DNA of 54,538 nucleotides from Acetobacteraceae bacterium (GTDB lineage: Bacteria; Pseudomonadota; Alphaproteobacteria; Acetobacterales; Acetobacteraceae). Numbering within the stretch: the stretch's first letter is position 1; the number at the start of each line of letters is the position of its first letter. The DNA lies in NCBI GenBank assembly GCA_027487385.1, contig JAIYDS010000048.1, forward strand, positions 1 to 54,538, in the 5' to 3' direction. Shown here one piece after another: positions 12,084 to 54,538 of the stretch. Below the pieces are notes generated by a model. The model saw only the letters and a list, made by a program, of their open reading frames with translations, did not search any database and was not told the DNA's origin. Both the position numbers and the translations under genes were made by a program.

Positions 12084-15000
12084 TCATGCCTGCGCTGTAA
12101 GCACCAGCTGCCCGGAGCCGATCAGCATGGCCAGGCGTGCCGCCAAAGCAGGCATGGCGCTGGGCTCCAGCCCCAGGAGGCGCGTCACGCCTTCGGCCAA
12201 TTCCTCCTCGCTCGCCCGCGGGTCCAGCGCCAGCACGTCGCGCCCCGCGGCCGCCACTTCCTCGGGATGGATCATGGCCGGGCGGCGCAGATGGGCGGCG
12301 GCGGCGCGGCGGTCCCGCGCCTGGACGGGTCCGCGCTCCTCGGGGAACCAGAAGCCGCCGGCCTCGGAGACGCCTTGCAGCAGCCGCGCCTCGTTCAGCG
12401 CGGCGGCGAAGGCCTTGGCATCGGGCGCGGCGGCGCCCAGCAGCAGGCGCAGGCGTTCCTGCACCGCATCGCCATGCACCGGCGCCTCGGTGGCGATGAT
12501 GCTTGCGATGAGGCCGGCCAGCTCGGCGCGGTTGGCGGGCGCGCGGTCCATTGTCGCCTCGATATAGGCGGGCGCCATTTGCAACCCAGAGACCGGCGCC
12601 GCGGCTTCGGGGGCGGCCAGGCCCAGCGGGGCGCGCAGCCGGGCGGCGGCGGCCTCCGGCTGGTTCAGCCAATCGAGCGACCAGCTGCGCGCCAGCGCCC
12701 AGCCCATCCCCTCCAGCGCCATCTGCCGGCCGCGATCCCGATCGCGGGCGCAGCGCAGGCCGGACCAATCCGCGCCATCCACCTCCACACCCAGGTCGAA
12801 GCCCTGCGGGCCGCGCGCCGCGACATCGAGAAACAGGCCGGACAGGCCCACGCGGGGCACCGCCTCGCGCCCCGATTGCGTGATGAGCCCAGCGATCAAC
12901 CCTGCGATGGACGAGCCCTCGCGCGTCTCGGCCCGGGCCATGGCGCCGCCGGCGGCGAAGCCGAGGAAGGTCTTGAGCGCGGCCACGCCGCGCCCCTTGG
13001 CGCGCTCCAGATCCACCTCCTCCGCGCCGATGCCGGAGAAGACGATGCAGCGCTTTTTCGCGCGGGTGATCAGCACGTTCAGCCGCCGCTCGCCGCCATC
13101 ATTCGAAAGCGGGCCGAAGCGCATGGCGAGCTTGCCATCGGCACCACGGCCATAGCCCACGCTGATCATGATGGAATCGCGCTCATCGCCCTGCACGTTT
13201 TCCAGGTTCTTCACGAAGAAGGGCTCGGCCGGATGGGCGGTGAAGAAGGCCTCGGTCTCGGGGCTTTCGCGGCGCAGCGCCTCCACCGCATCGGCGATGG
13301 CGTCGCGCTGGGTGACGGAGAAGGCGGCGACGCCCAGCGTATCGCCCGGCGTTTCGCGCGCATGGCGCAGCACCGCCTCGGCCACGGCGCGGGCTTCCTC
13401 GGCGTTAGAACTGCCCTTGAAGCGGCCTTCCACGCGGTTCAGCGACAAGCCGAGCGCCGGGCTGCGCGGCCTGGGCGAGGGCAGCACAAGAAGGCGGCTG
13501 TCGTAGAATTCGGCATTGCTGGTGGCGATCAGGCTCTCGTGCCGGCTGCGATAATGCCAGCGCAGCATGGCCGTCGGGATGCCGCGCGCATTGGCCAGGC
13601 CCAGGATGCTCTCCACATCGCGCGCATCCAGCGCGTCATCCTCTTCGGCGGGCGCGTCCTCGCTCTCCTCCGTCATGCGCTGGAAGAAGCGGGTGGGGGG
13701 CATCTGCTTGTCATCGCCGACCACGACGATCTGCCGCGCGCGGGCGATGGCGCCCAGCGCATCCACCGGCTCGATCTGGCTGGCCTCATCCATCACCAGC
13801 AGGTCGAAGACGGGGAAGCCGGCTTGCGTCGCGTGGTGCGGATTGGCCAGGAATTGCGCGACGCTCAGCGGGCTGAGCATGAGGATGGGCTTGGCCTTGC
13901 GGATCAGCGGCGCGGCGCGCGACAGCAGCGTGCGCAACGGCGCATGGCCGCGCTTGCGCTCGAATTCGCCGCGCAGGAAGGCGAGGGCCGCGCCTTCCTC
14001 CCCCTGCCGCAGCGCCTCGACGCGCCCGGCGTGGATCGCGGCGGCCTCGGCGCGCGCCAGGCGGACGCGGGCGGCGTCCGCCGCGCGGAAATCCAGCACC
14101 CAGCGATCCGCCGCCGCGCCGTCAAAGGCGGCGAGTTCGGGATGCGCGCGCATCGCCACCCGGAACAGGGCTTCCAGGATGGCGAAATCCAGCGCGGCTT
14201 CGGCCGCATCCGGCGGCAGGGTGCCGCTGGTCAAAGCCTCGGCGAGCGGGGCGAGGCTGGGTTCGGCGGCCTCGGCACGCGCCCAGGCCTGCCAGGGGGC
14301 CAGCGCCTCGGGCTCCGCGGCCATGGCGGCCAGGCGCTCGGCTGTCGCGGCGAAGGATTCCGCGGGTGCCAGGCCGGTGGCGTCGCGGATCGCAGCCCAG
14401 GCGGAGAGCGCCTCGCGCTGCGCCGGGCCGGCGGGCGGCGCTTCAAAGGCCGAAGCGTGGCGCGCCATCCAGGCGAGGCCTGCTTCCAGCGCGGCCGCAT
14501 CCGGCCCGGCGCCGAGCCTGGCCCGCGCCGCCTGCGCCGCCAGCAGGGCATCGAGCGCCGCCATATCCTCCGGGTCGCGCAACGCGGCGGCGAGGGCCGC
14601 CTTGGCCGCGCGCCGCCCGCCATCCAGGAAGCCCAGCATGCCGCCGGGCCTGGCCAGTGTGTCGCGCGCGGCAGCGAGGCCCGGCGCGTCCAGCGCGCCG
14701 GGCAGAAAGCGCGGATCCTGGGTGGCAACCAAGCGCAGATCGGCGAGGCGCGCCTGCGCCGCGGGAACCTCCTCCGGCCGCATCGGCGCTTCCGCGCGCA
14801 GGGCTTCGGCGGCCAAGGCGGCCTCCGCCTCGGCCACGCCGGCCGGCGCCGCGGCGAGGGATCGGATGGCGCGCGGCAATTCCGACATCAGGCGCTGCGC
14901 CGCGATGGCATCGAGCGGCGCCGTCACCCCGCGCCAGGGGCTCCGCGCGCCCGCCACCGTGCTCGCCAGGTTGCGCGCCGCCTCGCGCAGGGCGCGCAGC

Positions 15001-16364
15001 CGCGCCGCATTCCATCCCGCGGGGTCCAGCCGGAAGGGCGGCGGCGTGGCGCCCGAGGCGCGGAGCGCGGCGAGCCGGCCCACCACCTCCTGCACGGTCA
15101 CGCCCGTCTCACCCACCACATCCCGCATCGCCGCCGCGTGCCGGTTCAGCCTGCCGCGCAGATCACCCAGGCGCTGCACCGCCGCCTCGCGCTGCGGCGG
15201 CACGGGTGGCGGCAGCGCGAGCGTGGCGCGCAGCTCATCCAGCACGGCGCGCTTGGATTGCTTCTCGCTGTGCAATTCGAGCACGGCCGCGCCCAGGCCG
15301 AATTGCGTGAGGCGGCGCTTCACCACCTCCAGCGCCGCCGCCTTCTCGGCCACGAAGAGCACGCTGCGCCCATCCATCACCGCCTGGGCCAGGATGTTCA
15401 CGATGGTCTGGCTCTTGCCCGTGCCGGGCGGCCCCTGGATCACCAGGGAATGGCCGCGCCGCACCGCCTCGGCGGCCAGGGCCTGGCTGCCATCCACCTC
15501 CACCACATGATCCAGCTTCTCGACCGGAATCGCCGCATCCACATCGGCGTCATCGGCGAAGGGGGGCGGTTCGGCGGCGGGGGGGGTGGGATCGAGCAGG
15601 CGCAGCACGGTCGGGTGCGTCAGCAGCCCGGGATGCCCCACCGGGTCCAGGTCCCGCCACATCAGGAATTTCGCGAAGGCGAAGATGCCGAGCGCCAGCG
15701 CATCGGCCTCCACGCGCCAGCCCTCGCGCGCGCCGGTGGCGGCCTGCATGCGCGCCGCCCAATCGGCCGGCGTTTCCCCGGTGAAATCCGGCAAGGTGAT
15801 GCGGAAATCCACGCTGAGCTTTTCGCGCAGCGAGAGGTTTTCCACCACATCCTCCGGGCTCGCGCGCAGGCGGAAGCGGTTGCTCACCCCTTCGCGTTCC
15901 AGCGTGGCGGGAATGAGGGCGAGGGGCGCCGCGCGCTCGGTGCCGGGCGTGCCCGGGTCGCGCCAGATCAGGGCGCCCACGGCGAGGAACAAGCTCGGCA
16001 CGCCGCTCTCCTCGCGCGCGCTGCGGGCATCGCTCATCACATCGCGCAGGCGGCGGGTGAGTTCCTCGGCGGAGAGGGCCACGCGCAGCTGCGTGTCACG
16101 CCGCCATTCCTCGCGCGTCGTGCTGCTGCTGGCGGTGGCGACGCCCTCGGCGCGCTTGCGCGTCTTCGCCTCGCCCGCCACACCGGCCTCGAAGCCGAAG
16201 CCCTTGCCGGCGGCGAGCTGCGCCACGACGAAATTCGCATCCTCGTCGGCGATGCGGATCACTCCGCGGGAGCGGCCCTGCGCCGGCAGGCTGAGAAGGC
16301 GGTTGCGGGTGGAAAGGTCAATCAGCGCGCGCCGCGCCTGTTCGAGCTGCGCGGCGAGACTCAT
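12084..16364 (-). CDS. DUF4011 / SF1 helicase / MTES_1575-type nuclease / DUF3320 protein
   Basis: This is a 1426-residue multidomain protein. The N-terminus (about 1-280) fits DUF4011, with LIDLSTRNRLLSL near its start. The superfamily-1 helicase has Walker A GPPGTGKSQT near 311, Walker B LLVMDEASQIEP near 857, WHYRSRHE near 940 and NVLITRAKKR near 1096. The central insert is helical and alanine-rich. Residues about 1165-1215 match the PD-(D/E)xK-like MTES_1575/Vsr-type nuclease (EVDGADW, then RDRDRGRQMALEGMGW), and residues about 1255-1300 fit DUF3320. This architecture has been reported in defence islands as a candidate single-gene anti-phage protein. The gene overlaps the antiporter by four bases (ATGA). 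The long open frames opposite it are GC artefacts. Confidence 0.82.
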   Translation of the reverse strand: MSLAAQLEQARRALIDLSTRNRLLSLPAQGRSRGVIRIADEDANFVVAQLAAGKGFGFEAGVAGEAKTRKRAEGVATASSSTTREEWRRDTQLRVALSAEELTRRLRDVMSDARSAREESGVPSLFLAVGALIWRDPGTPGTERAAPLALIPATLEREGVSNRFRLRASPEDVVENLSLREKLSVDFRITLPDFTGETPADWAARMQAATGAREGWRVEADALALGIFAFAKFLMWRDLDPVGHPGLLTHPTVLRLLDPTPPAAEPPPFADDADVDAAIPVEKLDHVVEVDGSQALAAEAVRRGHSLVIQGPPGTGKSQTIVNILAQAVMDGRSVLFVAEKAAALEVVKRRLTQFGLGAAVLELHSEKQSKRAVLDELRATLALPPPVPPQREAAVQRLGDLRGRLNRHAAAMRDVVGETGVTVQEVVGRLAALRASGATPPPFRLDPAGWNAARLRALREAARNLASTVAGARSPWRGVTAPLDAIAAQRLMSELPRAIRSLAAAPAGVAEAEAALAAEALRAEAPMRPEEVPAAQARLADLRLVATQDPRFLPGALDAPGLAAARDTLARPGGMLGFLDGGRRAAKAALAAALRDPEDMAALDALLAAQAARARLGAGPDAAALEAGLAWMARHASAFEAPPAGPAQREALSAWAAIRDATGLAPAESFAATAERLAAMAAEPEALAPWQAWARAEAAEPSLAPLAEALTSGTLPPDAAEAALDFAILEALFRVAMRAHPELAAFDGAAADRWVLDFRAADAARVRLARAEAAAIHAGRVEALRQGEEGAALAFLRGEFERKRGHAPLRTLLSRAAPLIRKAKPILMLSPLSVAQFLANPHHATQAGFPVFDLLVMDEASQIEPVDALGAIARARQIVVVGDDKQMPPTRFFQRMTEESEDAPAEEDDALDARDVESILGLANARGIPTAMLRWHYRSRHESLIATSNAEFYDSRLLVLPSPRPRSPALGLSLNRVEGRFKGSSNAEEARAVAEAVLRHARETPGDTLGVAAFSVTQRDAIADAVEALRRESPETEAFFTAHPAEPFFVKNLENVQGDERDSIMISVGYGRGADGKLAMRFGPLSNDGGERRLNVLITRAKKRCIVFSGIGAEEVDLERAKGRGVAALKTFLGFAAGGAMARAETREGSSIAGLIAGLITQSGREAVPRVGLSGLFLDVAARGPQGFDLGVEVDGADWSGLRCARDRDRGRQMALEGMGWALARSWSLDWLNQPEAAAARLRAPLGLAAPEAAAPVSGLQMAPAYIEATMDRAPANRAELAGLIASIIATEAPVHGDAVQERLRLLLGAAAPDAKAFAAALNEARLLQGVSEAGGFWFPEERGPVQARDRRAAAAHLRRPAMIHPEEVAAAGRDVLALDPRASEEELAEGVTRLLGLEPSAMPALAARLAMLIGSGQLVLTAQA

Positions 16365-41386: not shown

Positions 41387-41433
41387 GAGGATGATTCAGC
41401 GTCCCGGCGATGCCGCCCCGACGCATCATGCTC
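41387..41433 (-). repeat. Intergenic hairpin repeat, family B, copy 4 (head only)
   Basis: Reading the minus strand, GAGCATGAT (41433-41425) pairs with the ATCATCCTC end (41395-41387). Inside it GCGT (41424-41421) pairs with ACGC (41402-41399) and GGGCGGC (41418-41412) with the GCCGGG segment (41408-41403) around an ATC loop. The outer arms match copy 1; the inner stems differ in both arms at once. The palindromic tail of the other copies is missing. The element begins on the last base of the binding-protein gene's stop codon. Confidence 0.6.
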
Positions 41434-42407
41434 TACTCCGCCTGGATGTTGGCCTCACGCACCAGCCGCGTCCAGAAGGCCCGCTGCTCGCGCATATGGG
41501 CGTCCAGCACAGCGCCCGGCGTGAAGGCGGCGACCGAGCCCATGCTGGTCATCTGCGCCACCATGGCGGGCTCGCTCATCACCGCGCGGAAGCCATCCTC
41601 CAGGATTTGCCGCCGCGCCGGCGGGATGCGCGCAGGGGCGATGACGCCGTTGAAGCCCATCAGCGCCCAATCCGTTCCCGTCTCCCGCACCGTGGGAATA
41701 TCCGGCAGACCCGGATGCCGCTCGGGCGAGGAGATGGCCAGCACCCGCACGCGGCCGCCCTCATGCGCACCGCGGAACACGCCGTAATTGCCGACCATGA
41801 GCTGCACATCGCCCGCCAGCAGCCCCTGCAGCGCCGGGCCGGTGCCGCGATAGGGCACATGCGTCATGGAAACCCCCGCCGCGCGCCGCCAGGATTCGTA
41901 GAAGAGATGCGGCCCCGAGCCGATGCCGGCCGAGCCGAAATGCAGCGCATCCGGCCGCGCCTTCAGCAGCGCCACGAACTCCTGCATGCTCCGCGCCGGC
42001 ACCGCGGCCGAGACCACCAGCACCGAAGGCCCGGCGGTCAGCTGCGCCACGCCGACGAAATCGCGCTGCGTGTCGAAGGGCAGATTGGGATAGAGCGCAT
42101 GCGTGATGCCAAGATTGCCCGCATCGCCCATGAAGAGCGTGTGCCCGTCCGGCTCGACCCGCGCCATGAACTCCATGGCGATATTGCCATTGGCGCCGCC
42201 CCGATTTTCTACCACCACCGGCTGGCCCAGCCGCTCGGAAAGCCGCTGCATGATGGGCCGCCCCACCGTGTCCACGCCGCCGCCCGCCGGATAGCCGATG
42301 ACGAGGCGGATCGGCCGGTCCGGAAAGGCGCCCTGGGCGAGTGCAGGCGGGGCGAGCGCGGGGCTGGCGAGCGGGGCAAGCAGCAAGGCGCGACGTGTGG
42401 CGAGCAT
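41433..42407 (-). CDS. TTT-family (Bug) tricarboxylate-type solute-binding protein 1
   Basis: The protein has 324 residues, with a signal peptide (LLLAPLASPALAPPALAQG). Hallmarks of the Bug family follow: FPDRPIRLVIGYPAGGGVDT, VVVENRGGANGNIAMEF, HFGSAGIGSGPHLFYESW and MTHVPYRGTGPALQGLLAGD. It binds a small carboxylate or related compound in the periplasm. The TctA/TctB membrane parts are not nearby, as is common for this expanded family. GGAG lies eight bases before the ATG at 42407. The 169-base gap to the divergent gene at 42577 should carry both promoters, but no convincing boxes are seen. Confidence 0.86.
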   Translation of the reverse strand: MLATRRALLLAPLASPALAPPALAQGAFPDRPIRLVIGYPAGGGVDTVGRPIMQRLSERLGQPVVVENRGGANGNIAMEFMARVEPDGHTLFMGDAGNLGITHALYPNLPFDTQRDFVGVAQLTAGPSVLVVSAAVPARSMQEFVALLKARPDALHFGSAGIGSGPHLFYESWRRAAGVSMTHVPYRGTGPALQGLLAGDVQLMVGNYGVFRGAHEGGRVRVLAISSPERHPGLPDIPTVRETGTDWALMGFNGVIAPARIPPARRQILEDGFRAVMSEPAMVAQMTSMGSVAAFTPGAVLDAHMREQRAFWTRLVREANIQAE

Positions 42408-42576
42408 CAGGGTGTCTCCGCTGGGGTGCACAAGCCTCGCGCTTCGGGATGCGAGCGCAAAGCGGAAATTGCGCGGAAATCCAAGGCCCACCCCGCATCT
42501 GCCCAAGGCTTGGGCGGCGCCCCTTCTGGCCGGCCGCGATGCGGGGCATGCTGCGCGCAACCACGAGGAGAACGCC

Positions 42577-44358: not shown

Positions 44359-45345
44359 CTACTCCAGGCGGATATTGGCGTCGCGCACAAAGGCCTGCCA
44401 CTTGGCGCTCTCGCTGCGGAAGAAGGCGGCGAATTGCTCGGGCGTATTGGGCTCGGCCGTCAGGTCGCTGGCGCGCAGGGTCTGCTGAAAGGCCGGATCC
44501 ACCACGATCTGGTTGAGCAGGGCGGAAAGCCGCTCCACCACGGCGGACGGCGTGCCGGTGCGGAGAAAAATGCCGTTCCACTCGACGGTGGCGAAGCCCG
44601 GCAGCGTTTCCGACAGGGCGGGCAGGTCCGGCAGGGCGTTGATGCGCGGGCGGGCGCCGGTATGCGCGAGCGCCTTCACCTGCCCATCACGCACCTGCGC
44701 CACGGCCGAGTTCACATTGCCGAAGAAGAGCTCGATCTGCCCGGCGACCAGGTCGGTCAAGGCCGGCGCTCCGCCGCGATAGGGGATGTGGTTGGCGCGC
44801 ACGCCCGCATCGCGCAGGAACAGCTCCAGCACCAGATGCTGCTGGGAGCCGATGCCGGAGGAACCGGCGGCGAAATTGCCATTGGCGCGGCGCATGATCT
44901 CGATCAGCTCAGGAACGCTGCGCGCCGGCGAATTGCGCCGCACCAGCACCAGCTGCGGCACCGACATGGTCTGGAAGACCGGGAGGAACTCGCGCTCCGG
45001 CACATGGCGCTGCCCGCCGAACAGGGCGGGCGTGACCGAAATCGGCGTCGCCTGGTTCATGATGGTGTAGCCATCATTCGGCGCCTGGATCATCGCCTGC
45101 TCACCGATGGTGCCGGTGGCGCCGCCGCGATTCTCGACCACGAAGGGCTGGCCCGTGCGGGTGGCCAGCGCCTGGGCGTACAGCCGACCCACAAGATCGG
45201 CCGCGCCGCCCGCGGGCCATGGGACGATCATGCGGACCGGCCGGCTGGGCCAGGGGGGTTGCGCCAAGGCCGGCGTCGCCAAGGCCGCAAGGGGGGACAG
45301 CGGCGCGGCCAGCACCAGGCGGCGCCCGAACGGGGTGTGTGTCAT
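44359..45345 (-). CDS. TTT-family (Bug) tricarboxylate-type solute-binding protein 2
   Basis: The protein has 328 residues with a signal peptide ending ATPALAQP. It shows the Bug family signatures WPSRPVRMIVPWPAGGAADL, FVVENRGGATGTIGEQAM, FAAGSSGIGSQQHLVLELF and ANHIPYRGGAPALTDLVAGQ. It differs well from the binding protein at 41433, so the two probably bind different ligands. AGAGGAAA precedes the ATG at 45345. It is encoded four bases upstream of the amidohydrolase family 2 gene. No TctAB permease is in the window. Confidence 0.86.
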   Translation of the reverse strand: MTHTPFGRRLVLAAPLSPLAALATPALAQPPWPSRPVRMIVPWPAGGAADLVGRLYAQALATRTGQPFVVENRGGATGTIGEQAMIQAPNDGYTIMNQATPISVTPALFGGQRHVPEREFLPVFQTMSVPQLVLVRRNSPARSVPELIEIMRRANGNFAAGSSGIGSQQHLVLELFLRDAGVRANHIPYRGGAPALTDLVAGQIELFFGNVNSAVAQVRDGQVKALAHTGARPRINALPDLPALSETLPGFATVEWNGIFLRTGTPSAVVERLSALLNQIVVDPAFQQTLRASDLTAEPNTPEQFAAFFRSESAKWQAFVRDANIRLE

Positions 45346-45405: not shown

Positions 45406-45927
45406 CTACCCATTCGCCTCCAGAAGGGCAAGAAGCCCGGCCAGGATCTGCTCCGGCGCGGGCGGGCAGCCGGGAATCACAAGGTCCACCGGCAAGGCAG
45501 CCTCCACGCCGCCGAGCACGGCGTAGCTGCCGCGGAACACCCCGCCATCCACCGCGCAGTCGCCCAGCGCCACCACCCAGCAGGGCTCGGGCGTCGCGGC
45601 GCGCGCGCGCTCCAGCGCCTCGGCCATGTTGCGCGTGACCGGGCCGGTGACGAGCAGGATATCGGCATGGCGCGGGCTCGCCACGAAGCGCAGGCCGAAG
45701 CGCTCCAGGTCATGCGCCACATTCTGCAGCGCATTCACCTCCAGCTCGCACCCATTGCAGCTGCCGGCATCCACCTGGCGGATGGCAAGCGATCGGCCGA
45801 GCCGGGATTGCGCCGCTTCGTCCAGCCTGGCGCGCAACTCGGCCAGGATCTCGGGCGGCGTGGCCTCCGGCGCGGCATCGGTGAGTGGGCGGGAGACGAG
45901 GTTGCGCAGCAGCTTGGGGATGAGCAT
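45406..45927 (-). CDS. Small FeS subunit of Hyf/Ech-related complex (HyfI/NuoB-like)
   Basis: The protein has 173 residues. The four cysteines that bind the cluster nearest the active site in NuoB and in hydrogenase small subunits are all present: Cys57 and Cys60 in GSCNGCELEV, Cys124 in LGDCAVDGG and Cys154 in IPGCPPAPEQI. The CxxC form is that of group 4 hydrogenases, not the CC of complex I. It is the last gene of the operon and starts on the last base of the VOC gene stop. The FeS site is intact although its partner large subunit lacks the Ni site. Confidence 0.85.
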   Translation of the reverse strand: MLIPKLLRNLVSRPLTDAAPEATPPEILAELRARLDEAAQSRLGRSLAIRQVDAGSCNGCELEVNALQNVAHDLERFGLRFVASPRHADILLVTGPVTRNMAEALERARAATPEPCWVVALGDCAVDGGVFRGSYAVLGGVEAALPVDLVIPGCPPAPEQILAGLLALLEANG

Positions 45928-46307
45928 CAGCCGGTCTCCGGCGTGGCTTCGGTGAAAACCAGGCGATTGCCGAAGGGATCAGCCACCTCCATGTCGCGCC
46001 AGCCCCAGGGCCGCTCCAGGATGCCGGGCCGCGCGTGGCGGTAATCCTTGGCGGTGAGTTCCGCATGCAGCGCATCCAGCCCCGTCATGCGCAGCATCAG
46101 CTTGGTGCCGGGCGTGCCATCGCCGAAATGCTCGCTGAGGAACAGCAGCAGCGCGCCGCGCGACACCTGCGCGAAGAGGGGCGCGGTCGTGTCGAAGCGA
46201 TGCTCCCAATCCCAGGACATCCCGAGGAAATCGACATAGAATTCGCGCGCCTTCGCCACGTCGAAGATGCGCAGCACGGGGATGGTGGCGTCGAAGCGCG
46301 GGTTCAC
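45927..46307 (-). CDS. VOC-superfamily (glyoxalase/bleomycin-resistance-like) protein
   Basis: The protein has 126 residues and two beta-alpha-beta-beta-beta units of the VOC fold: TIPVLRIFDVAKAREFYVDF and LGMSWDWEHRF, then TGLDALHAELTAKDYRHARP and WGWRDMEVADPFGNRLVFTE. PFGNRL and a late Glu are typical metal-site or fold positions. VOC proteins include glyoxalases, dioxygenases and drug-binding proteins. The gene lies between two subunit genes of the Hyf-like complex, overlapping the upstream one by four bases and the downstream one by one. That is unusual and suggests a fixed place in the operon. Its function there is unknown. Confidence 0.78.
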   Translation of the reverse strand: MNPRFDATIPVLRIFDVAKAREFYVDFLGMSWDWEHRFDTTAPLFAQVSRGALLLFLSEHFGDGTPGTKLMLRMTGLDALHAELTAKDYRHARPGILERPWGWRDMEVADPFGNRLVFTEATPETG

Positions 46308-47788
46308 AGATCCACCCCGCTATAGCTGCCATTGATGCTTTTGTTGATCAGCGGGAAGTCGGCCACGATGTTGCCGATCACCGCGGCCTCCAGCAGCGGC
46401 CAATGCAGCCAGGAGGGGTCGCGCAGCATGCAGGCCTCGATGCCGCCTGCGCCATCCAGCCGCATCCAGGCGAGGCATTCGCCGCGGAAGCCCTCCACCA
46501 GCGCGATGCCCTCGCCACCGCGCGGCGGGAGGGTCACGGTGAGTTCTCCTTCCGGCAGGGCGGGCAGCAGGGATTGCAGCATGGCAACGGATTGCAGCGC
46601 CTCGTCGTAGCGCTGGCGCCAGCGCGCATCCACATCGGCGCCGGACTGTGTGGCCAGCGCCTCTGGCGCCAACTCGCCGGTCAGGAGCCGGGCGTCGAAG
46701 CCGCGGCCCGCCGCACGGCCCACCACGCCGCCGGGCGCGAAACCCGCGACCAGTTCCGGCACCATGACGCCGGTGCCCAGCACGCGGTCCTGCAGGCTCG
46801 CATGGCTTTCGTAGAGCGCCAGCAGCTGAGGCAGTTCGGCCGCGATGGCGGTCAGCGACGCCAGAAGCGCCGCGATCCCTTCGCCATTGAGATCCTGCGC
46901 CACGCCGCCTGGCAGCACGCGGTCCATCATCAGGCGATGGCCAAACGCCGTGGCCTGGGCCCGCAGCAGCCCTTCGCGGAGCCACCCGCAGCGCGCATGG
47001 ATCACGGCGAAGGCCGCGTCGTTGGAAATGAAGCCGAGGTCGTTCAGGTGATTGTGCAGCCGCTCCAGCTCCAGCATCGCGCTTCGTAGGGCAAGCGCGC
47101 GCGGCGGCGCCTCCACCTCCAGCGCCGCTTCCGCCGCGCGGGCGAAGGCCAGCGAATGTGCCACCGTCGTATCGCCCGAGAGTCGCGCGGCGAAGCGGGC
47201 CGCGGCGCGCGGCGGCTTGCCCTGGATCAGCGAGAGCGTGCCCTTGTGCGTATAGCCCAGCCGCACCTCCAGCCGGACGATGATCTCGCCCTGGATGTGG
47301 AAGCGGAAATGCCCGGGCTCGATGATCCCCGCATGGATGGGGCCGACCGGGATGATGTGCACGCCATCGCCCGTGGCCGGCAGGAATTCCATCGGCTGGG
47401 GGTTGGGCGCCTGCGCGGCCGGGCGGCCAGAGAGCGGCCCCAGCAGGGGCCAGCGGCCGTGATCCAGGAAGGGCCGTGGATCGGTGCCGCCTTCCGCCTC
47501 GATGCCCCAGAGGTCGCGCAGCGCGCGCTCGAAGAGGGCGGCGCTGGGCCAGAGCGGGGAGAGGGCGGGGATGCGCCCCTCCTCTGCCGGGACGGAGGCC
47601 AGCAGCACCTCCATCCGTTCCTCGTCCAGGAAGGCGGCATGCGCATGGCCGGCTTCGCCCCAGAGCCCGAGCAGCGCGAAACCCGGCGCGGGCGCCAGCG
47701 CGGCCCAGCGCCGTGCGTCGAGCTGATGGCGCGGCCAGGGCCGGCAGCCCATGGAAAGGCCGGATTGGATCAGCGCGCGCAGCGTCAT
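46304..47788 (-). CDS. Large subunit of Hyf/Ech-related complex (HyfG/NuoCD-like) without Ni-binding cysteines
   Basis: The protein has 494 residues: an N-terminal NuoC-like part (about 1-140) and a NuoD/hydrogenase-large-subunit part (IVRLEVRLGYTHKGTLSLIQ). In NiFe hydrogenases the first Ni motif reads R-V-C-G-I-C-x-x-x-H-S; here it is RLSGDTTVAHS, with Ser204 and Thr207 in place of the two Cys. The C-terminal D-P-C-x-x-C motif is replaced by INGSYSGVDL (Ser488, Gly491). The protein therefore cannot hold the NiFe centre. This matches the Ehr (energy-converting-hydrogenase-related) complexes. The start at 47788 overlaps the upstream gene by ATGA. Calling it a hydrogenase would be wrong. Confidence 0.85.
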   Translation of the reverse strand: MTLRALIQSGLSMGCRPWPRHQLDARRWAALAPAPGFALLGLWGEAGHAHAAFLDEERMEVLLASVPAEEGRIPALSPLWPSAALFERALRDLWGIEAEGGTDPRPFLDHGRWPLLGPLSGRPAAQAPNPQPMEFLPATGDGVHIIPVGPIHAGIIEPGHFRFHIQGEIIVRLEVRLGYTHKGTLSLIQGKPPRAAARFAARLSGDTTVAHSLAFARAAEAALEVEAPPRALALRSAMLELERLHNHLNDLGFISNDAAFAVIHARCGWLREGLLRAQATAFGHRLMMDRVLPGGVAQDLNGEGIAALLASLTAIAAELPQLLALYESHASLQDRVLGTGVMVPELVAGFAPGGVVGRAAGRGFDARLLTGELAPEALATQSGADVDARWRQRYDEALQSVAMLQSLLPALPEGELTVTLPPRGGEGIALVEGFRGECLAWMRLDGAGGIEACMLRDPSWLHWPLLEAAVIGNIVADFPLINKSINGSYSGVDL

Positions 47789-49200
47789 GCCAGCAGCCTC
47801 GACGCTTCCAGCAGCATCCGCGACAGCGGCGCGGGCAGGGCGATCGCCAGGATCGCCGCCAGCAGCAGATGCACCCAGAGCGGCAGCAGCGTGGCAAGGC
47901 CCGCCGCCATCGGCGCCGGTTGCGGCGTGGGCAGGCCGAAGCAGAGCCGCTGCATGGCGTGCAGCAGCGCCGTGCCGGCCACCAGCAGCCCCAGGATGAA
48001 GAGCGGCAGCAGCCACGGCGCCTCACGTCCGATGGCCGAGGCGAGCAGCAATTCCGAGGCAAAGAGGCTGAAGGGCGGCAGCCCCGCCAACGCCGCCATG
48101 GCCAGCGCCAGGCCCCAGCCCAGCGCGGGATGCGAGGTGGCGAGCCCGCCGATTGCCGCCATGTGCTGCGCCCCCTTGATCCGCACCGCGCGGCCGATGG
48201 CGAAGAAGGCCGCCGACTTCACCAGCGAATGGCCCCAGAGATGCAGCAGCCCGGCCATGGTGCCGACCGCGCCGCCCACCCCGAAGGCAATGGCCGCGAT
48301 GCCCATATGCTCGATGCTGCTCCAGCCGAAGAGGCGCTTCGCGTCCCGCCGCCGCCAGAGGGACAGCCCCGCCAGCAGCAGCGTGGCCATCCCCATCACG
48401 ATGAGGAAAATCCCCGGCGGGATGGTCTCAGGATGGGCGGCGACGATGCTCTTGCCGCGCAGGATGGCCAGCATCGCCGCATTCAGCAGCAGGCCGGAGA
48501 GCACGGCGGCAATGGGCGTCGGCCCCTCGGCATGGGCGTCGGGCAGCCAGGAATGCATCGGCACGAGGCCGGCCTTGGTGCCGAAGCCCACCAGCAGGAA
48601 CACGAAGGCGAGGTTCAGAAGGCTGGGATCGGCCCGCGCCGCCAGCGCCCGCAGCGCGGTGTAGGAAAGCTGCCCCTCGGCATGGCCGGCCAGCGGCTGC
48701 GCGGCCAGTGCCAGGACGATCAGCCCGAACAGCGCCAGCGCGATGCCCACGCCGCAGAGGATGAAGAATTTCCACGCCGCCTCGATCGCCGCCGGCGTGC
48801 GATGCAGCGCCACCATCAGCACGCAGGCGAGCGTCCCCGCCTCGATCGCCACCCACATGATGCCCAGATTGTCGGCCAGCAGCGCCAGGTAATGCGCCGC
48901 CATGAAGCCCTGGAAGGCCGCGTGATAGGCGCGGCGCTGCGGGGTGTCGAAGCCCTCGCCCTCGATGTCCTGCGCGGAAAAGATGGCCGTGCTGAAGCCG
49001 ACGATGGCGGCGATGAGAACCAGCGGCGTGTTCAGCGCATCGGCGCGCAGCCAGCCTGTGCCGGCGGGTTCGCCCAGCAGCAGCAAGGCAAAAATCAGCG
49101 CGACGCCCGAGGCCAGGATGTTGATCCGCGGCGCCTGCGCCGGCAGCGCCGCGCAAAGCGCCGCGCCCAGGACCGGCGTGAGGATGAGCCAGAGCGTCAT
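47785..49200 (-). CDS. Antiporter-like membrane subunit (HyfF/NuoN-type)
   Basis: This 471-residue protein of about fourteen membrane helices belongs to the Mrp/Nuo antiporter-like family: IMWVAIEAGTLACVLMVALH with the helix-5 Glu, VGFGTKAGLVPMHSWLPDAH with the helix-7 Lys, and HLWGHSLVKSAAFFAIGRAV with later Lys and His. These are the charged residues of the proton channel in complex I-like enzymes, so it should move H+ or Na+. It overlaps hyfE- and hyfG-like genes by four bases on either side. Confidence 0.86.
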   Translation of the reverse strand: MTLWLILTPVLGAALCAALPAQAPRINILASGVALIFALLLLGEPAGTGWLRADALNTPLVLIAAIVGFSTAIFSAQDIEGEGFDTPQRRAYHAAFQGFMAAHYLALLADNLGIMWVAIEAGTLACVLMVALHRTPAAIEAAWKFFILCGVGIALALFGLIVLALAAQPLAGHAEGQLSYTALRALAARADPSLLNLAFVFLLVGFGTKAGLVPMHSWLPDAHAEGPTPIAAVLSGLLLNAAMLAILRGKSIVAAHPETIPPGIFLIVMGMATLLLAGLSLWRRRDAKRLFGWSSIEHMGIAAIAFGVGGAVGTMAGLLHLWGHSLVKSAAFFAIGRAVRIKGAQHMAAIGGLATSHPALGWGLALAMAALAGLPPFSLFASELLLASAIGREAPWLLPLFILGLLVAGTALLHAMQRLCFGLPTPQPAPMAAGLATLLPLWVHLLLAAILAIALPAPLSRMLLEASRLLA

Positions 49201-49923: not shown

Positions 49924-50883
49924 TCACGCCAATCCTGTGGAAACGAAGATCAGCGCCGCCGCCAGCAGGGCCAGCATCAGCGCGCCGCCCAGGAACTCCG
50001 GCACGCGGAAGACGCGCATCTTGGCGATGGCGCTTTCGAACACCGCCAGCGCCAGGGCCAGCAGCCCGATCTTCCCCGCCCAAAGCACCAGGCCCAGCCC
50101 CCAGGCAAAGGGCCCGCTGCCCGGCGCCGCCGTGCCGAAGGGCAGGAACAGCGCGGCCAGCAGCCCGAGCCAGACCAGCAGCTTCAGCGCCGCCTGCATC
50201 TCCCACAGCGCGAGATGCCGGCCCGAGGCCTCCAGCAGCATCGCCTCATGCACCATGGTGAGTTCCAGATGCGTGGCGGGATTGTCCACCGGCACGCGGG
50301 CATTCTCGGCCAGGGCCACCGCCACCAACGCCACCGCGGCGAAGAGCAGCGAAACGCGCAGGCCCATTTGCCCATCCGCCAGCCCATGGCCGATGGCGTT
50401 CAGATTGGTGCTGCCGATCAGCACGGCGAAGACCATGACGCAGACCAGCAGCGCGGGTTCGGCGAAGACGGCGAAGGTCATCTCGCGCGCCGCCCCCAGC
50501 CCGCCAAAGGGCGTGCCGGCATCATGCCCGTTCAGCGCCAGCGCCACGCGCGACAGCGCAAGAAGCCCGCCGATCAGCAGCAGATCGGCCATGGGCGCCA
50601 GCACCATGCCGAAGGCGAAGCTCGGCACCAGCACGGCCGCCAGCAACGTCGCCCCAAGCGCGAGATAGGGCGCCACGCGGGAGACCGGGCTGGCGCTCTC
50701 GGCCAGCACCGGGCGCTTGCGCAGCAGCTTCAGGATGTCCCGCCAGGGCTGCAGGGGATGCGGGCCGCGCCGCCCCATCAGCCGCGATTTCAGCCAGCGC
50801 ACCGCGCCCACCAGCAGCGGCGCCGCCGCCAGCATGAGCGCGAAGTGCAGGATCTGCGTGACAAGGCTGCCCAGCACCGCCAT
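49924..50883 (-). CDS. HyfC/NuoH-like membrane subunit
   Basis: The protein has 319 residues with about eight membrane helices. The family markers are GRRGPHPLQPWRDILKLLRK and the acidic stretch ENARVPVDNPATHLELTMVH with EAMLLEASGRHLALWE, the region that in NuoH and EchB contacts the hydrophilic arm and starts the proton channel. It anchors the FeS and large subunits to the membrane. Its ATG shares one base with the upstream hyfB-like stop (TGATG). Confidence 0.87.
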   Translation of the reverse strand: MAVLGSLVTQILHFALMLAAAPLLVGAVRWLKSRLMGRRGPHPLQPWRDILKLLRKRPVLAESASPVSRVAPYLALGATLLAAVLVPSFAFGMVLAPMADLLLIGGLLALSRVALALNGHDAGTPFGGLGAAREMTFAVFAEPALLVCVMVFAVLIGSTNLNAIGHGLADGQMGLRVSLLFAAVALVAVALAENARVPVDNPATHLELTMVHEAMLLEASGRHLALWEMQAALKLLVWLGLLAALFLPFGTAAPGSGPFAWGLGLVLWAGKIGLLALALAVFESAIAKMRVFRVPEFLGGALMLALLAAALIFVSTGLA

Positions 50884-53053: not shown

Positions 53054-53602
53054 ATGGGTATGCTTCTGGCCTTCAGCCGGGGCGTGGACTGGATGGGCGA
53101 GAAATTCGGCCGCGTGGCCGATTGGTGCATCCTGCTAGCCTGCGCCATCAGCGCCGGCAATGCGCTCAGCCGCTACGGCTTCAACATCTCTTCCAACGCC
53201 TGGCTGGAGGTGCAGTGGTACCTCTTCGCCGCGGTGGTGATGCTGGGCGCCAGCTACACGCTGTTCCGCAACGAGCATGTCCGGGTGGACCTGATCTACG
53301 GCTGGATGAGCGAGCGCGGCCGGCTCTATGTGGATATCTTCGGCATCATCGTCTTCCTGCTGCCGGCGATGATCCTCCTCACCTGGATGACCTGGCCCTT
53401 CTTCATGGACAGCTTCCTCCGCAACGAGGGCTCGGCCAGCCCCGGCGGCCTGCTGCGCTGGCCGGCGAAGTTCCTTCTGCCCCTCGGCTTCTTCCTGCTG
53501 GTGCTGCAAGGGCTTTCGGAGCTGATCAAGCGCATCGCCCTGCTGCGCGGCCCGGTCGAGGGGGTTGCCGTCGTCACCGAATACCAGCGGCCCGAACAGT
53601 GA
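53054..53602 (+). CDS. dctQ: TRAP transporter small permease (DctQ)
   Basis: The protein has 182 residues with four membrane helices. It shows the DctQ pattern: ISAGNALSRYGFNISSNAWL, EVQWYLFAAVVMLGASYTLF and RNEHVRVDLIYGWM. DctQ pairs with the large permease DctM, encoded ten bases downstream, and a periplasmic binding protein to import carboxylates with Na+. The binding-protein gene is not in the window. GGGGAGGA lies 8-15 bases before the ATG at 53054; the ATG at 53060 is possible too. Confidence 0.88.
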   Translation: MGMLLAFSRGVDWMGEKFGRVADWCILLACAISAGNALSRYGFNISSNAWLEVQWYLFAAVVMLGASYTLFRNEHVRVDLIYGWMSERGRLYVDIFGIIVFLLPAMILLTWMTWPFFMDSFLRNEGSASPGGLLRWPAKFLLPLGFFLLVLQGLSELIKRIALLRGPVEGVAVVTEYQRPEQ

Positions 53603-53612
53603 GGTCTGCCCC

Positions 53613-54538
53613 ATGAGCCTCGACATCATGCCGCCGCTCATGTTTGGCGGCCTTGTCCTCTTCCTGCTGCTGGGATTCCCGGTCGCCTTCTCGCTCTGCG
53701 CGGTGGGGCTGTTCTTCGGCTTTCTCTCCATCGAGCTGGGCTTCTTCACCCCTGCCTATCTCGGCAACCTGCCGATCCGCGTCTTCGGCATCCTCTCGAA
53801 CGACCTGCTCCTGGCCATTCCCTTCTTCACCCTGATGGGGGCCATCCTGGAGCGTTGCGGCCTGGCCGAGGACCTGCTGGAGGGCACCGGGCAATTGTTC
53901 GGGAAGATCCCGGGCGGGCTCGCCTATGCCGTCATCATCGTGGGCGCCGTGCTGGGCGCCATCACCGGCACGGTCGCGGCCTCGGTCATCGCGATGGGCA
54001 TGATCTCCCTGCCCATCATGATCCGCTATGGCTATGACATGCGGATCGCGACCGGCGTGATCGCGGCCTCCGGCACCATCACCCAGCTGATTCCGCCTTC
54101 GCTGGTTCTGATCGTCCTGGGCGATCAGCTCGGCAAGAGCGTGGGTGACATGTATGCGGGCGCCATCGGGCCCTCGATCCTGCAGATCCTGCTCTTCATC
54201 GGCTTCATCGCGGTGGTCTCCATCGTGGCGCCGCACAAAATGCCGCCCTTGCCGCCCGAGGCGCTGATGCCGCGCGGCTGGCCGCTCTATCGCCGCGTGC
54301 TGAAGGGCATGGTTCCCTCCATCGCGCTGATCTTCCTCGTCCTCGGGACCATCTTCATGGGCCTCGCCACGCCGACGGAGGCCGGGGCCATGGGGGCGGT
54401 CGGGGCCGTGGTGCTGGCCGTGATGAATGGCCGCTTCACCTGGAAGCTGCTGCGCGAGGCGATGGGAAACACCATGCGCCTCACTTCCATGGTGATCTTC
54501 ATCCTGATCGGCGCCACGGTGTTCAGCCTGGTCTTCCA
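53613..54538 (+). CDS. dctM: TRAP transporter large permease (DctM), partial
   Basis: The first 308 codons are visible and the gene runs off the window end. The protein is a polytopic membrane protein with the DctM features GGLVLFLLLGFPVAFSLCAV, NDLLLAIPFFTLMGAILERC, GAITGTVAASVIAMGMISLP, TITQLIPPSLVLIVLGDQ and ATPTEAGAMGAVGAV. It forms the substrate path of the TRAP transporter with DctQ. It uses an ion gradient, usually Na+. A binding-protein gene may follow outside the window. Confidence 0.9.
   Translation, partial: MSLDIMPPLMFGGLVLFLLLGFPVAFSLCAVGLFFGFLSIELGFFTPAYLGNLPIRVFGILSNDLLLAIPFFTLMGAILERCGLAEDLLEGTGQLFGKIPGGLAYAVIIVGAVLGAITGTVAASVIAMGMISLPIMIRYGYDMRIATGVIAASGTITQLIPPSLVLIVLGDQLGKSVGDMYAGAIGPSILQILLFIGFIAVVSIVAPHKMPPLPPEALMPRGWPLYRRVLKGMVPSIALIFLVLGTIFMGLATPTEAGAMGAVGAVVLAVMNGRFTWKLLREAMGNTMRLTSMVIFILIGATVFSLVF

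What the first reader, a model, noticed from the sequence alone, without database searches (positions are those of the whole stretch)
46304..47788. Hyf-like large subunit with all four Ni-ligating cysteines replaced: an Ehr complex, not a hydrogenase
The sequence shows RLSGDTTVAHS where NiFe hydrogenases have R-V-C-G-I-C-x-x-x-H-S (Ser204 and Thr207 for Cys), and INGSYSGVDL where they have D-P-C-x-x-C-x-D-R (Ser488 and Gly491 for Cys). The small subunit at 45406 keeps Cys57, Cys60, Cys124 and Cys154, and four membrane subunits (hyfB-, hyfC-, hyfE-, hyfF-like) are intact with their channel charges. Loss of the Ni site with retention of the FeS and pump parts implies selection for another electron reaction. 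Such Ehr complexes have been noted in the literature, but their donors and acceptors are not established.
Basis: partly seen in the sequence, partly recalled or inferred. Interest (0 to 1): 0.72.

Follow-up and report, generated by a model that had tools for sequence, protein, structure and literature searches.

The report
Hydrogenase-like ion pump lacking metal site
This operon encodes a membrane complex built like a hydrogen-making enzyme but with all four nickel-holding cysteines replaced, so it is almost certainly not a hydrogenase; such complexes are already known (as "Ehr") and common in related bacteria, but what they react with is still an open question.

Summary
On the minus strand, 47788-46304 encodes a 494-aa HycE/HyfG-like large subunit with Ser204, Thr207, Ser488 and Gly491 where [NiFe] hydrogenases have cysteines; it stops right after the last motif, with no maturation tail. 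The small subunit keeps its four cluster cysteines; four membrane subunits are present. No HypD or HycI was found in the genome (88.75% complete).

In 166 aligned large subunits, 160 rows without the four-cysteine set form one side of a branch; 120 of 166 carry Ser-Ser-Ser-Gly there. No ferredoxin-type (2x[4Fe-4S]) ORF was seen around the operon in 140 of 141 loci, and I found no conserved redox neighbour. The hydrogenase proton-relay Glu (E157) is kept in 149 of 160; the complex I quinone residues His38/Tyr87 are replaced. A VOC (glyoxalase-type) gene is wedged between large and small subunit here and in seven other loci.

Best reading: a redox-driven ion pump fed by an outside carrier; donor and acceptor are inferred, not shown. 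New member of a known kind; moderate interest.

The parts
46304..47788 (-). Large subunit (EhrL/HyfG-like), 494 aa; NuoC-like N-terminal part plus NuoD/HycE-like part; Ni ligands replaced by S204, T207, S488, G491; no C-terminal maturation tail
45406..45927 (-). Small subunit (EhrS/HyfI-like), 173 aa; C57-x-x-C60, C124, C154: one hydrogenase-type proximal [4Fe-4S] site (cluster inferred)
45927..46307 (-). VOC-fold gene (Pfam Glyoxalase_7), 126 aa, GTG start overlapping the large-subunit stop and stop overlapping the small-subunit ATG
47785..49200 (-). Antiporter-like membrane subunit (HyfF-like), 471 aa
49197..49868 (-). HyfE-like membrane subunit, 223 aa (no Pfam hit; NCBIfam hydrogenase 4 membrane subunit E 1.3e-21, below its cut-off)
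49924..50883 (-). NuoH/HyfC-like membrane anchor, 319 aa
50883..52865 (-). Antiporter-like membrane subunit (HyfB/NuoL-like), 660 aa; first gene of the operon

Best explanation
The operon encodes a six-subunit Ehr complex (membrane subunits of HyfB, HyfC, HyfE and HyfF type, large subunit L, small subunit S), nearest to HycE/HyfG-type hydrogenases but without the Ni-Fe site. Most likely a soluble or docked electron carrier encoded elsewhere reduces the single predicted [4Fe-4S] cluster of the small subunit. The electron is then used, with a proton delivered through the retained Glu157 relay, on a small acceptor bound in the metal-free chamber left by the Ni-Fe site. The event is passed through the HyfC-like anchor to the two antiporter-like subunits, which move H+ (or exchange Na+ for H+). 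Shown: anatomy, loss of all four ligands, conservation of the substitute motif, retention of cluster cysteines, no ferredoxin-type ORF near the operon. Inferred: cluster, electron flow, acceptor, ion pumping, direction. For an aerobic relative of Roseomonas my best guess for the acceptor is a quinone bound in a way unlike complex I (about 0.3); a polar metabolite is about as likely.
For: 160 of 166 rows, the window among them, lack the four-cysteine set and are not NuoD; the other six are 3 CCCC rows (HyfG, HycE, L080) and 3 NuoD-type rows (NuoCD and L203, L204, so named because the tree joins them to NuoCD). Residues shared with hydrogenases but not NuoD: 18, including E157-P-G-H-F-R162 and R435; shared with NuoD but not hydrogenases: 2 (three reference rows on each side). 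E157, aligned with MbhL E21, kept in 149 of 160. S204, G205 and D206 invariant in 43 of 43 rows of A3. Pairwise dN/dS of the large subunit 0.085 to 0.35 in five pairs. Closest solved structure by profile and by fold is HycE of formate hydrogenlyase. Genes collinear in 101 of 141 loci. No HypD or HycI match in the genome.
Against: No electron donor is encoded nearby: no ORF with two CxxCxxCxxxC motifs around the operon in 140 of 141 loci, 101 of which had the whole 12 kb in view, and no redox partner among the 8 recurrent neighbour clusters that I annotated through 10 proteins, apart from an aldo/keto reductase that lies next to it in a minority; so the electron path has no known entrance. I did not search the whole genome for donors such as formate dehydrogenase. 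Residues equivalent to complex I His38 and Tyr87 (quinone headgroup) are Ile156 and Gly205, which speaks against a complex-I-like quinone site. The HyfC-like anchor lacks two Glu of its loop. Nothing here measures redox chemistry or transport. The model is of one chain, and its low-confidence stretches (134-180, 472-480, 491-494) hold Glu157 and part of the C-terminal motif, so the chamber itself is not modelled.
Confidence: 0.55

Rival explanations
1. Redox-gated antiporter: no through-flow of electrons. The single cluster acts as a sensor whose redox or protonation state opens or closes ion exchange through the HyfB/HyfF-like subunits.
For: Only one predicted cluster, no ferredoxin-type ORF around the operon in 140 of 141 loci, no metal site, but proton-relay Glu kept in 149 of 160 and antiporter residues kept in the window.
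Against: Complexes of this superfamily with known function couple real redox turnover (general knowledge; MBS passages read in PMC7684303). The conserved polar set at the old Ni site (S204, D206, N486, S488) looks more like a binding or catalytic site than a sensor would need.
Confidence: 0.2
2. Formate-linked complex: a formate dehydrogenase docks on the small subunit and feeds it, as proposed for other Ehr complexes. This is a special case of the best explanation with the donor named.
For: From print only: FDH-Ehr complexes are hypothesised in Margulisbacteria and Saganbacteria (passages, PMC6349859), and Ehr subunits were more abundant in formate-grown Geobacter than in hydrogen-containing conditions (passage, PMC7894505).
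Against: No formate dehydrogenase among the neighbour clusters annotated; the genome was not searched for one.
Confidence: 0.1
3. Catalysis at the proximal cluster itself, as in the sulfur-reducing MBS complex of Pyrococcus furiosus.
For: MBS also lost part of the Ni-Fe ligands and uses the proximal cluster (passages read in PMC7684303).
Against: MBS does this with one non-cysteinyl iron, because its Cys loop is three residues shorter; here the C-x-x-C spacing is the hydrogenase type and all four cysteines are invariant in 14 of 14 small subunits. MBS lacks the E21 equivalent; 149 of 160 rows here keep it.
Confidence: 0.06
4. A real [NiFe] or other metal hydrogenase with displaced ligands.
For: Overall HycE fold; most relatives carry Cys481 and Cys487 next to the old site (both in 114 of 160).
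Against: The window lacks both of those cysteines; no HypD, no HycI match; no maturation tail; outside L080, HycE and HyfG only single cysteines at a ligand column, in L083 and L124.
Confidence: 0.02
5. A decaying former hydrogenase with no function.
For: Some relatives in the same family have lost much of the signature and several of them sit on long branches inside the core clade.
Against: dN/dS under 1 in all ten pairs tested, also in two pairs of diverged large subunits (0.22 and 0.32); reading frames open in the window; large-subunit match at E <= 2e-86 in 122 of 200 family genomes (hand count) and hits in other classes.
Confidence: 0.03

Closest known systems
Ehr (Ech- / energy-converting-hydrogenase-related) complexes, first described in Geobacter; the hyc-family genes of the M. 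tuberculosis operon Rv0081-Rv0087 are also called EHR (PMC7894505, PMC3569383, PMC6728331, passages read)
   Same: Hydrogenase-like large and small subunits with NuoL-like and HyfE-like membrane subunits; Ni-Fe cysteines absent in most; function not established in the passages read.
   Different: No Geobacter or mycobacterial sequence was compared here. This clade has a VOC gene inserted in some members.
E. coli formate hydrogenlyase large/small subunits HycE/HycG and Hyf (hydrogenase 4)
   Same: Closest solved structures; same kinds of subunit; shared motif EPGHFR.
   Different: Those have all four Ni ligands, a C-terminal tail, HyfH/HycF and HyfA/HycB ferredoxin-type subunits; none of these is in this operon.
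MBS (sulfane sulfur reductase) of Pyrococcus furiosus
   Same: Hydrogenase-related complex that lost Ni-Fe ligands and carries antiporter subunits.
   Different: MBS keeps two of four ligand cysteines, has an open-coordinated cluster and lacks the relay Glu (passages, PMC7684303); here no ligand cysteine, CxxC type, Glu kept.
Respiratory complex I (NuoCD, NuoB, NuoH, NuoL/M/N)
   Same: Superfamily and overall fold; no Ni site.
   Different: Quinone residues His38/Tyr87 replaced; small subunit has CxxC, not tandem Cys (PMC7684303); no NuoI, NuoE, NuoF or NuoG in the operon.

Membership tests
[quoted passage not shown]
Ehr complexes | Small subunit with proximal-cluster cysteines | tested here: met
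Ehr complexes | NuoL-like and HyfE-like membrane subunits (listed for Geobacter in PMC7894505) in one operon with large and small subunit | tested here: met
   the HyfE-like call rests on an NCBIfam hit below cut-off and the alignment
Ehr complexes | Common descent with Geobacter EhrL | not tested
   no Geobacter sequence was fetched; one search holds mainly Alphaproteobacteria, some Betaproteobacteria and one Nitrospirota MAG
Group 4 [NiFe] hydrogenase | Four Cys ligands (CxxC ... CxxC) of the Ni-Fe site | tested here: not met
Group 4 [NiFe] hydrogenase | Maturation genes (HypD; endopeptidase HycI) | tested here: not met
   genome 88.75% complete; one search gives HypD in 7 of 49 related genomes
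Hydrogenase 4 (Hyf) | Ferredoxin-type subunits (HyfH, HyfA) in the operon | tested here: not met
   the E. coli loci gave their known ones as positive controls (HyfA/HycB-sized ORFs only with the looser pattern)
Complex I | Quinone-headgroup residues (Nqo4 His38, Tyr87 equivalents) | tested here: not met
MBS | Proximal cluster with only three cysteine ligands because of a shortened Cys loop | tested here: not met
   spacing read against the description in PMC7684303; no structure of this small subunit was predicted
Any redox pump | Electron transfer coupled to ion transport | not testable with these tools
   needs biochemistry

The most novel reading that the evidence does not exclude
A hydrogenase module stripped to one cluster and a polar metal-free pocket works as a redox- or proton-gated switch on antiporter subunits, without any continuous electron flow; in some Roseomonas-like bacteria a VOC-fold protein, co-translated between the two catalytic subunits, brings or shapes the ligand of that pocket.
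Probability: 0.12. Interest if true: 0.75.

Novelty: new member of a known kind. Interest (0 to 1): 0.35.

Why it matters
Ehr complexes are found in many bacteria and lie between hydrogenases and complex I, yet no donor, acceptor or transported ion is established in the passages I read. The survey here narrows the options: a conserved substitute motif, a kept proton-relay Glu, a hydrogenase-type cluster site, and no electron-input subunit seen near the operon in 140 of 141 loci. Several hosts are named culturable species, which makes the question testable.

Tried and rejected
Quinone site like complex I: disfavoured on the two headgroup residues. MBS-like cluster catalysis: disfavoured on Cys spacing. 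A redox partner in the neighbourhood: the recurrent neighbours annotated are a TRAP transporter (DctM and DctQ in 20 of 61 family loci each, window included; DctP in 5), aldo/keto reductase (16 of 61), DUF1489, aminopeptidase, HolC and a small HTH protein, which look like lineage synteny; other clusters were not annotated. Replacement ligands: Cys481 and Cys487 occur together in 114 of 160 and are both absent in 31, but counted on the tree the co-variation is only suggestive (median p 0.06), and the window has neither. Literature: searches returned no paper; one search listed nothing whose title or abstract start concerns this operon (listing only). I found no paper on this alphaproteobacterial Ehr clade in searches, but PMC8691401, PMC6688271 and PMC4378227 were seen only in listings, Coppi 2005 is recalled and Marreiros 2013 was seen only as a reference.

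Limits: the 60 family loci were hand-picked from the ranked list to spread over genera. A3 uses 42 of those 80 plus the window. Gene calls come from my own codon-usage script; a first version was poor and dropped. The ferredoxin scan missed HyfA and HycB in its own controls; the looser rerun catches ORFs of that size and gives the same single hit, L148, which was not followed up; single motifs in 12 other loci, a 71-residue ORF in the window included, were not followed up. The tree is a quick search with long branches flagged. A2 includes E. coli HyfI and HycG, so the HycG hit is partly by construction.

Full report
What is there. The gene of the finding lies on the minus strand, 47788-46304, and gives 494 residues. 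It is the fifth of seven tightly packed genes on that strand: HyfB-like 52865-50883, HyfC-like 50883-49924, HyfE-like 49868-49197, HyfF-like 49200-47785, the large subunit, a VOC gene 46307-45927 and the small subunit 45927-45406. Pfam gives Complex1_49kDa (7e-20), Complex1_30kDa (9e-8) and NiFeSe_Hases (7e-7) for the large subunit, Oxidored_q6 (3e-33) for the small one, Proton_antipo_M for two membrane subunits and NADHdh for the HyfC-like one; the HyfE-like one has no Pfam hit and an NCBIfam hit below cut-off. There is no room in the operon for HyfA, HyfD or HyfH, which the E. coli hyf operon has.

The Ni site. Residues 204, 207, 488 and 491 are Ser, Thr, Ser and Gly against the four cysteines of HycE and HyfG. 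The chain ends at the motif, while HycE and HyfG continue for 32 residues. The window's genome has no match to HypD or HycI (completeness 88.75%), and its only PF00374 match is this gene. Of 49 related genomes that carry the operon or a diverged form of it, 42 lack HypD (I gave 49 of the 57 genomes from which loci were taken). G113, which carries the one CCCC relative, also lacks HypD but is only 88% complete, so that row does not help.

How common and how constrained. In 200 genomes of the same family, 195 have some match to the large subunit at E <= 1e-5, which includes ordinary NuoD; by my hand count of the rows, 122 of 200 have one at E <= 2e-86 and 78 do not. In 289 genomes of the class, 24, the window's own included, have a match at E <= 1e-150 by hand count. 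In 166 aligned large subunits the four positions read SSSG in 120; CCCC occurs only in HyfG, HycE and L080; a single cysteine at one position occurs in L083 and L124. The 160 rows that are neither CCCC nor NuoD-type are one side of a branch (SH-aLRT 99); L080, HyfG/HycE and NuoD lie on the other (quick tree, long branches flagged, unrooted). Inside that clade some members of the same family have lost much of the signature, several on long branches. dN/dS is below 1 in all ten pairs tested: large subunit 0.085, 0.22, 0.27, 0.32 and 0.35; small subunit 0.06, 0.24 and 0.31; VOC 0.42 and 0.49. So this does not look like decay.

What the site looks like. At 95% or more of 143 core rows, 22 residues are specific to Ehr against six reference rows, among them S204, D206, N256, H284, D289, N486, S488 and G491. 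Eighteen others are shared with hydrogenases (HyfG, HycE, L080) but not NuoD, including E157-P-G-H-F-R162 and R435, and only two with NuoD but not hydrogenases. [quoted passage not shown] it is kept in 149 of 160. The equivalents of complex I His38 and Tyr87 are Ile156 and Gly205 in the window, Ile in 142 and Gly in 151 of 160. Part of this conservation is by selection, since one scan pattern covers IEPGHFR and another DFPL[CIV]NKS. That these residues line one pocket is inferred from the hydrogenase alignment, not from a model.

The small subunit. C57-x-x-C60, C124 and C154 are invariant in 14 of 14 small subunits, from relatives with core, diverged (L074, L082) and CCCC (L080) large subunits and from E. 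coli HyfI and HycG. This is the hydrogenase spacing, not the tandem pair of complex I nor the shortened loop of MBS as described in PMC7684303.

Electron supply. I looked in six frames around the operon (8 kb upstream to 4 kb downstream of the large subunit, whole in 101 of 141 loci) for ORFs with two CxxCxxCxxxC motifs. One of 141 loci has one (L148, 390 residues, not followed up). The first pattern rang once in each E. coli control, for ORFs the size of HyfH, HycF and NuoI, but missed HyfA and HycB; a looser pattern also rings for ORFs of their size and gives the same single hit in the 141 loci. Genes are collinear B-C-E-F-G-I in 101 of 141 loci; I attribute the rest mostly to contig ends or to subunits too diverged for tblastn. 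No redox partner stood out among the recurrent neighbours that I annotated; an aldo/keto reductase is near the operon in 16 of 61 family loci, not always in the same place, and I take it for lineage synteny. The donor is therefore encoded elsewhere or does not exist; the genome was not searched for candidate donors.

The VOC gene. A Glyoxalase_7 gene (2e-45) sits between large and small subunit with 4-base and 1-base overlaps. It is present at this place in 7 of 141 loci, the window included, and in one more locus, L208. In 100 family genomes 10 have a match at E <= 1e-15, and 6 of those 10, the window's own included, are at this operon (neighbours checked). L033 and L034 are very close in the large subunit, but only L034 has the gene at the operon. 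It is sporadic, so not needed for the complex in general, yet preferentially placed there. Its role is unknown; similarity to bleomycin-binding proteins is far below NCBIfam cut-offs. Seven other loci have a G-I gap over 230 bases without this gene; two of those gaps (L045, L099) hold a small ORF resembling each other.

Structure. AlphaFold2 with A3 gave mean pLDDT 82.4, pTM 0.87. Foldseek's best match is HycE of formate hydrogenlyase (7z0s_E, E 2e-29, query TM-score 0.86), ahead of complex I NuoCD. The profile of A3 scores HycE 305 bits, MbhL 189 and the best NuoD 171. The stretches with Glu157 and part of the C-terminal motif have pLDDT under 50, so no pocket geometry is claimed.

Comparison with print. 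Ehr complexes are described as related to group 4 hydrogenases without Ni/Fe ligands, with function unknown or suspected charge translocation (passages read in PMC6349859 and PMC10284858), first found in Geobacter, with most members lacking the cysteines (passage in PMC3569383). The Geobacter subunits EhrA (NuoL-like), EhrC (HyfE-like), EhrL and EhrS are listed in PMC7894505 (passages read), which also reports higher Ehr abundance with formate and suggests a link to formate dehydrogenase; PMC6349859 hypothesises FDH-Ehr complexes. The tuberculosis-complex EHR is judged not a functional hydrogenase for lack of maturation genes (passage in PMC6728331). The window's operon meets this definition. 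I did not compare it with a Geobacter or mycobacterial sequence.

Verdict. Identity as an Ehr-type, non-hydrogenase complex: about 0.95. Redox-driven ion pump with an outside donor: about 0.55 to 0.6. Exact donor and acceptor: open.

Noticed in passing
window 45927-46307 (-): A VOC/Glyoxalase_7 gene is wedged between large and small subunit with overlapping stop/start codons; also at this place in L032, L034, L040, L046, L050, L097 and L208, absent there in L033, whose large subunit is very close to L034's.
   Followed up: partly
L080, 9101-10696 (-): A relative in the same family with all four Ni cysteines; it ends at the CYSCTDR motif without a tail, and the ferredoxin scan found nothing nearby. 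Its genome shows no HypD but is 88% complete.
   Followed up: partly
L062, L074, L077-L079, L081-L088: Diverged large subunits nested in the core Ehr clade that have lost most of the signature; the two small subunits aligned from this group (L074, L082) keep all four cysteines, and dN/dS in two pairs is 0.22 and 0.32.
   Followed up: partly
large-subunit residues 481 and 487 in relatives: A pair of cysteines near the old Ni site, both present in 114 of 160 and both absent in 31 including the window; co-loss on the tree only suggestive.
   Followed up: partly
L045 10672-10939 and L099 9506-9984: A different small ORF, alike in the two loci, lies between large and small subunit.
   Followed up: no
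window 53060-54536 (+): DctQ and DctM of a TRAP transporter lie divergent from the operon; the pair recurs in 20 of 61 family loci, window included.
   Followed up: partly
window 12084-16364 (-): 1426-aa protein with DUF4011, helicase-type AAA domains and an MTES_1575 nuclease domain, a possible defence-type protein.
   Followed up: no
window 41433-42431 and 44359-45345 (-): Two TctC-type solute receptors close to two amidohydrolase genes, a catabolic-looking neighbourhood.
   Followed up: no
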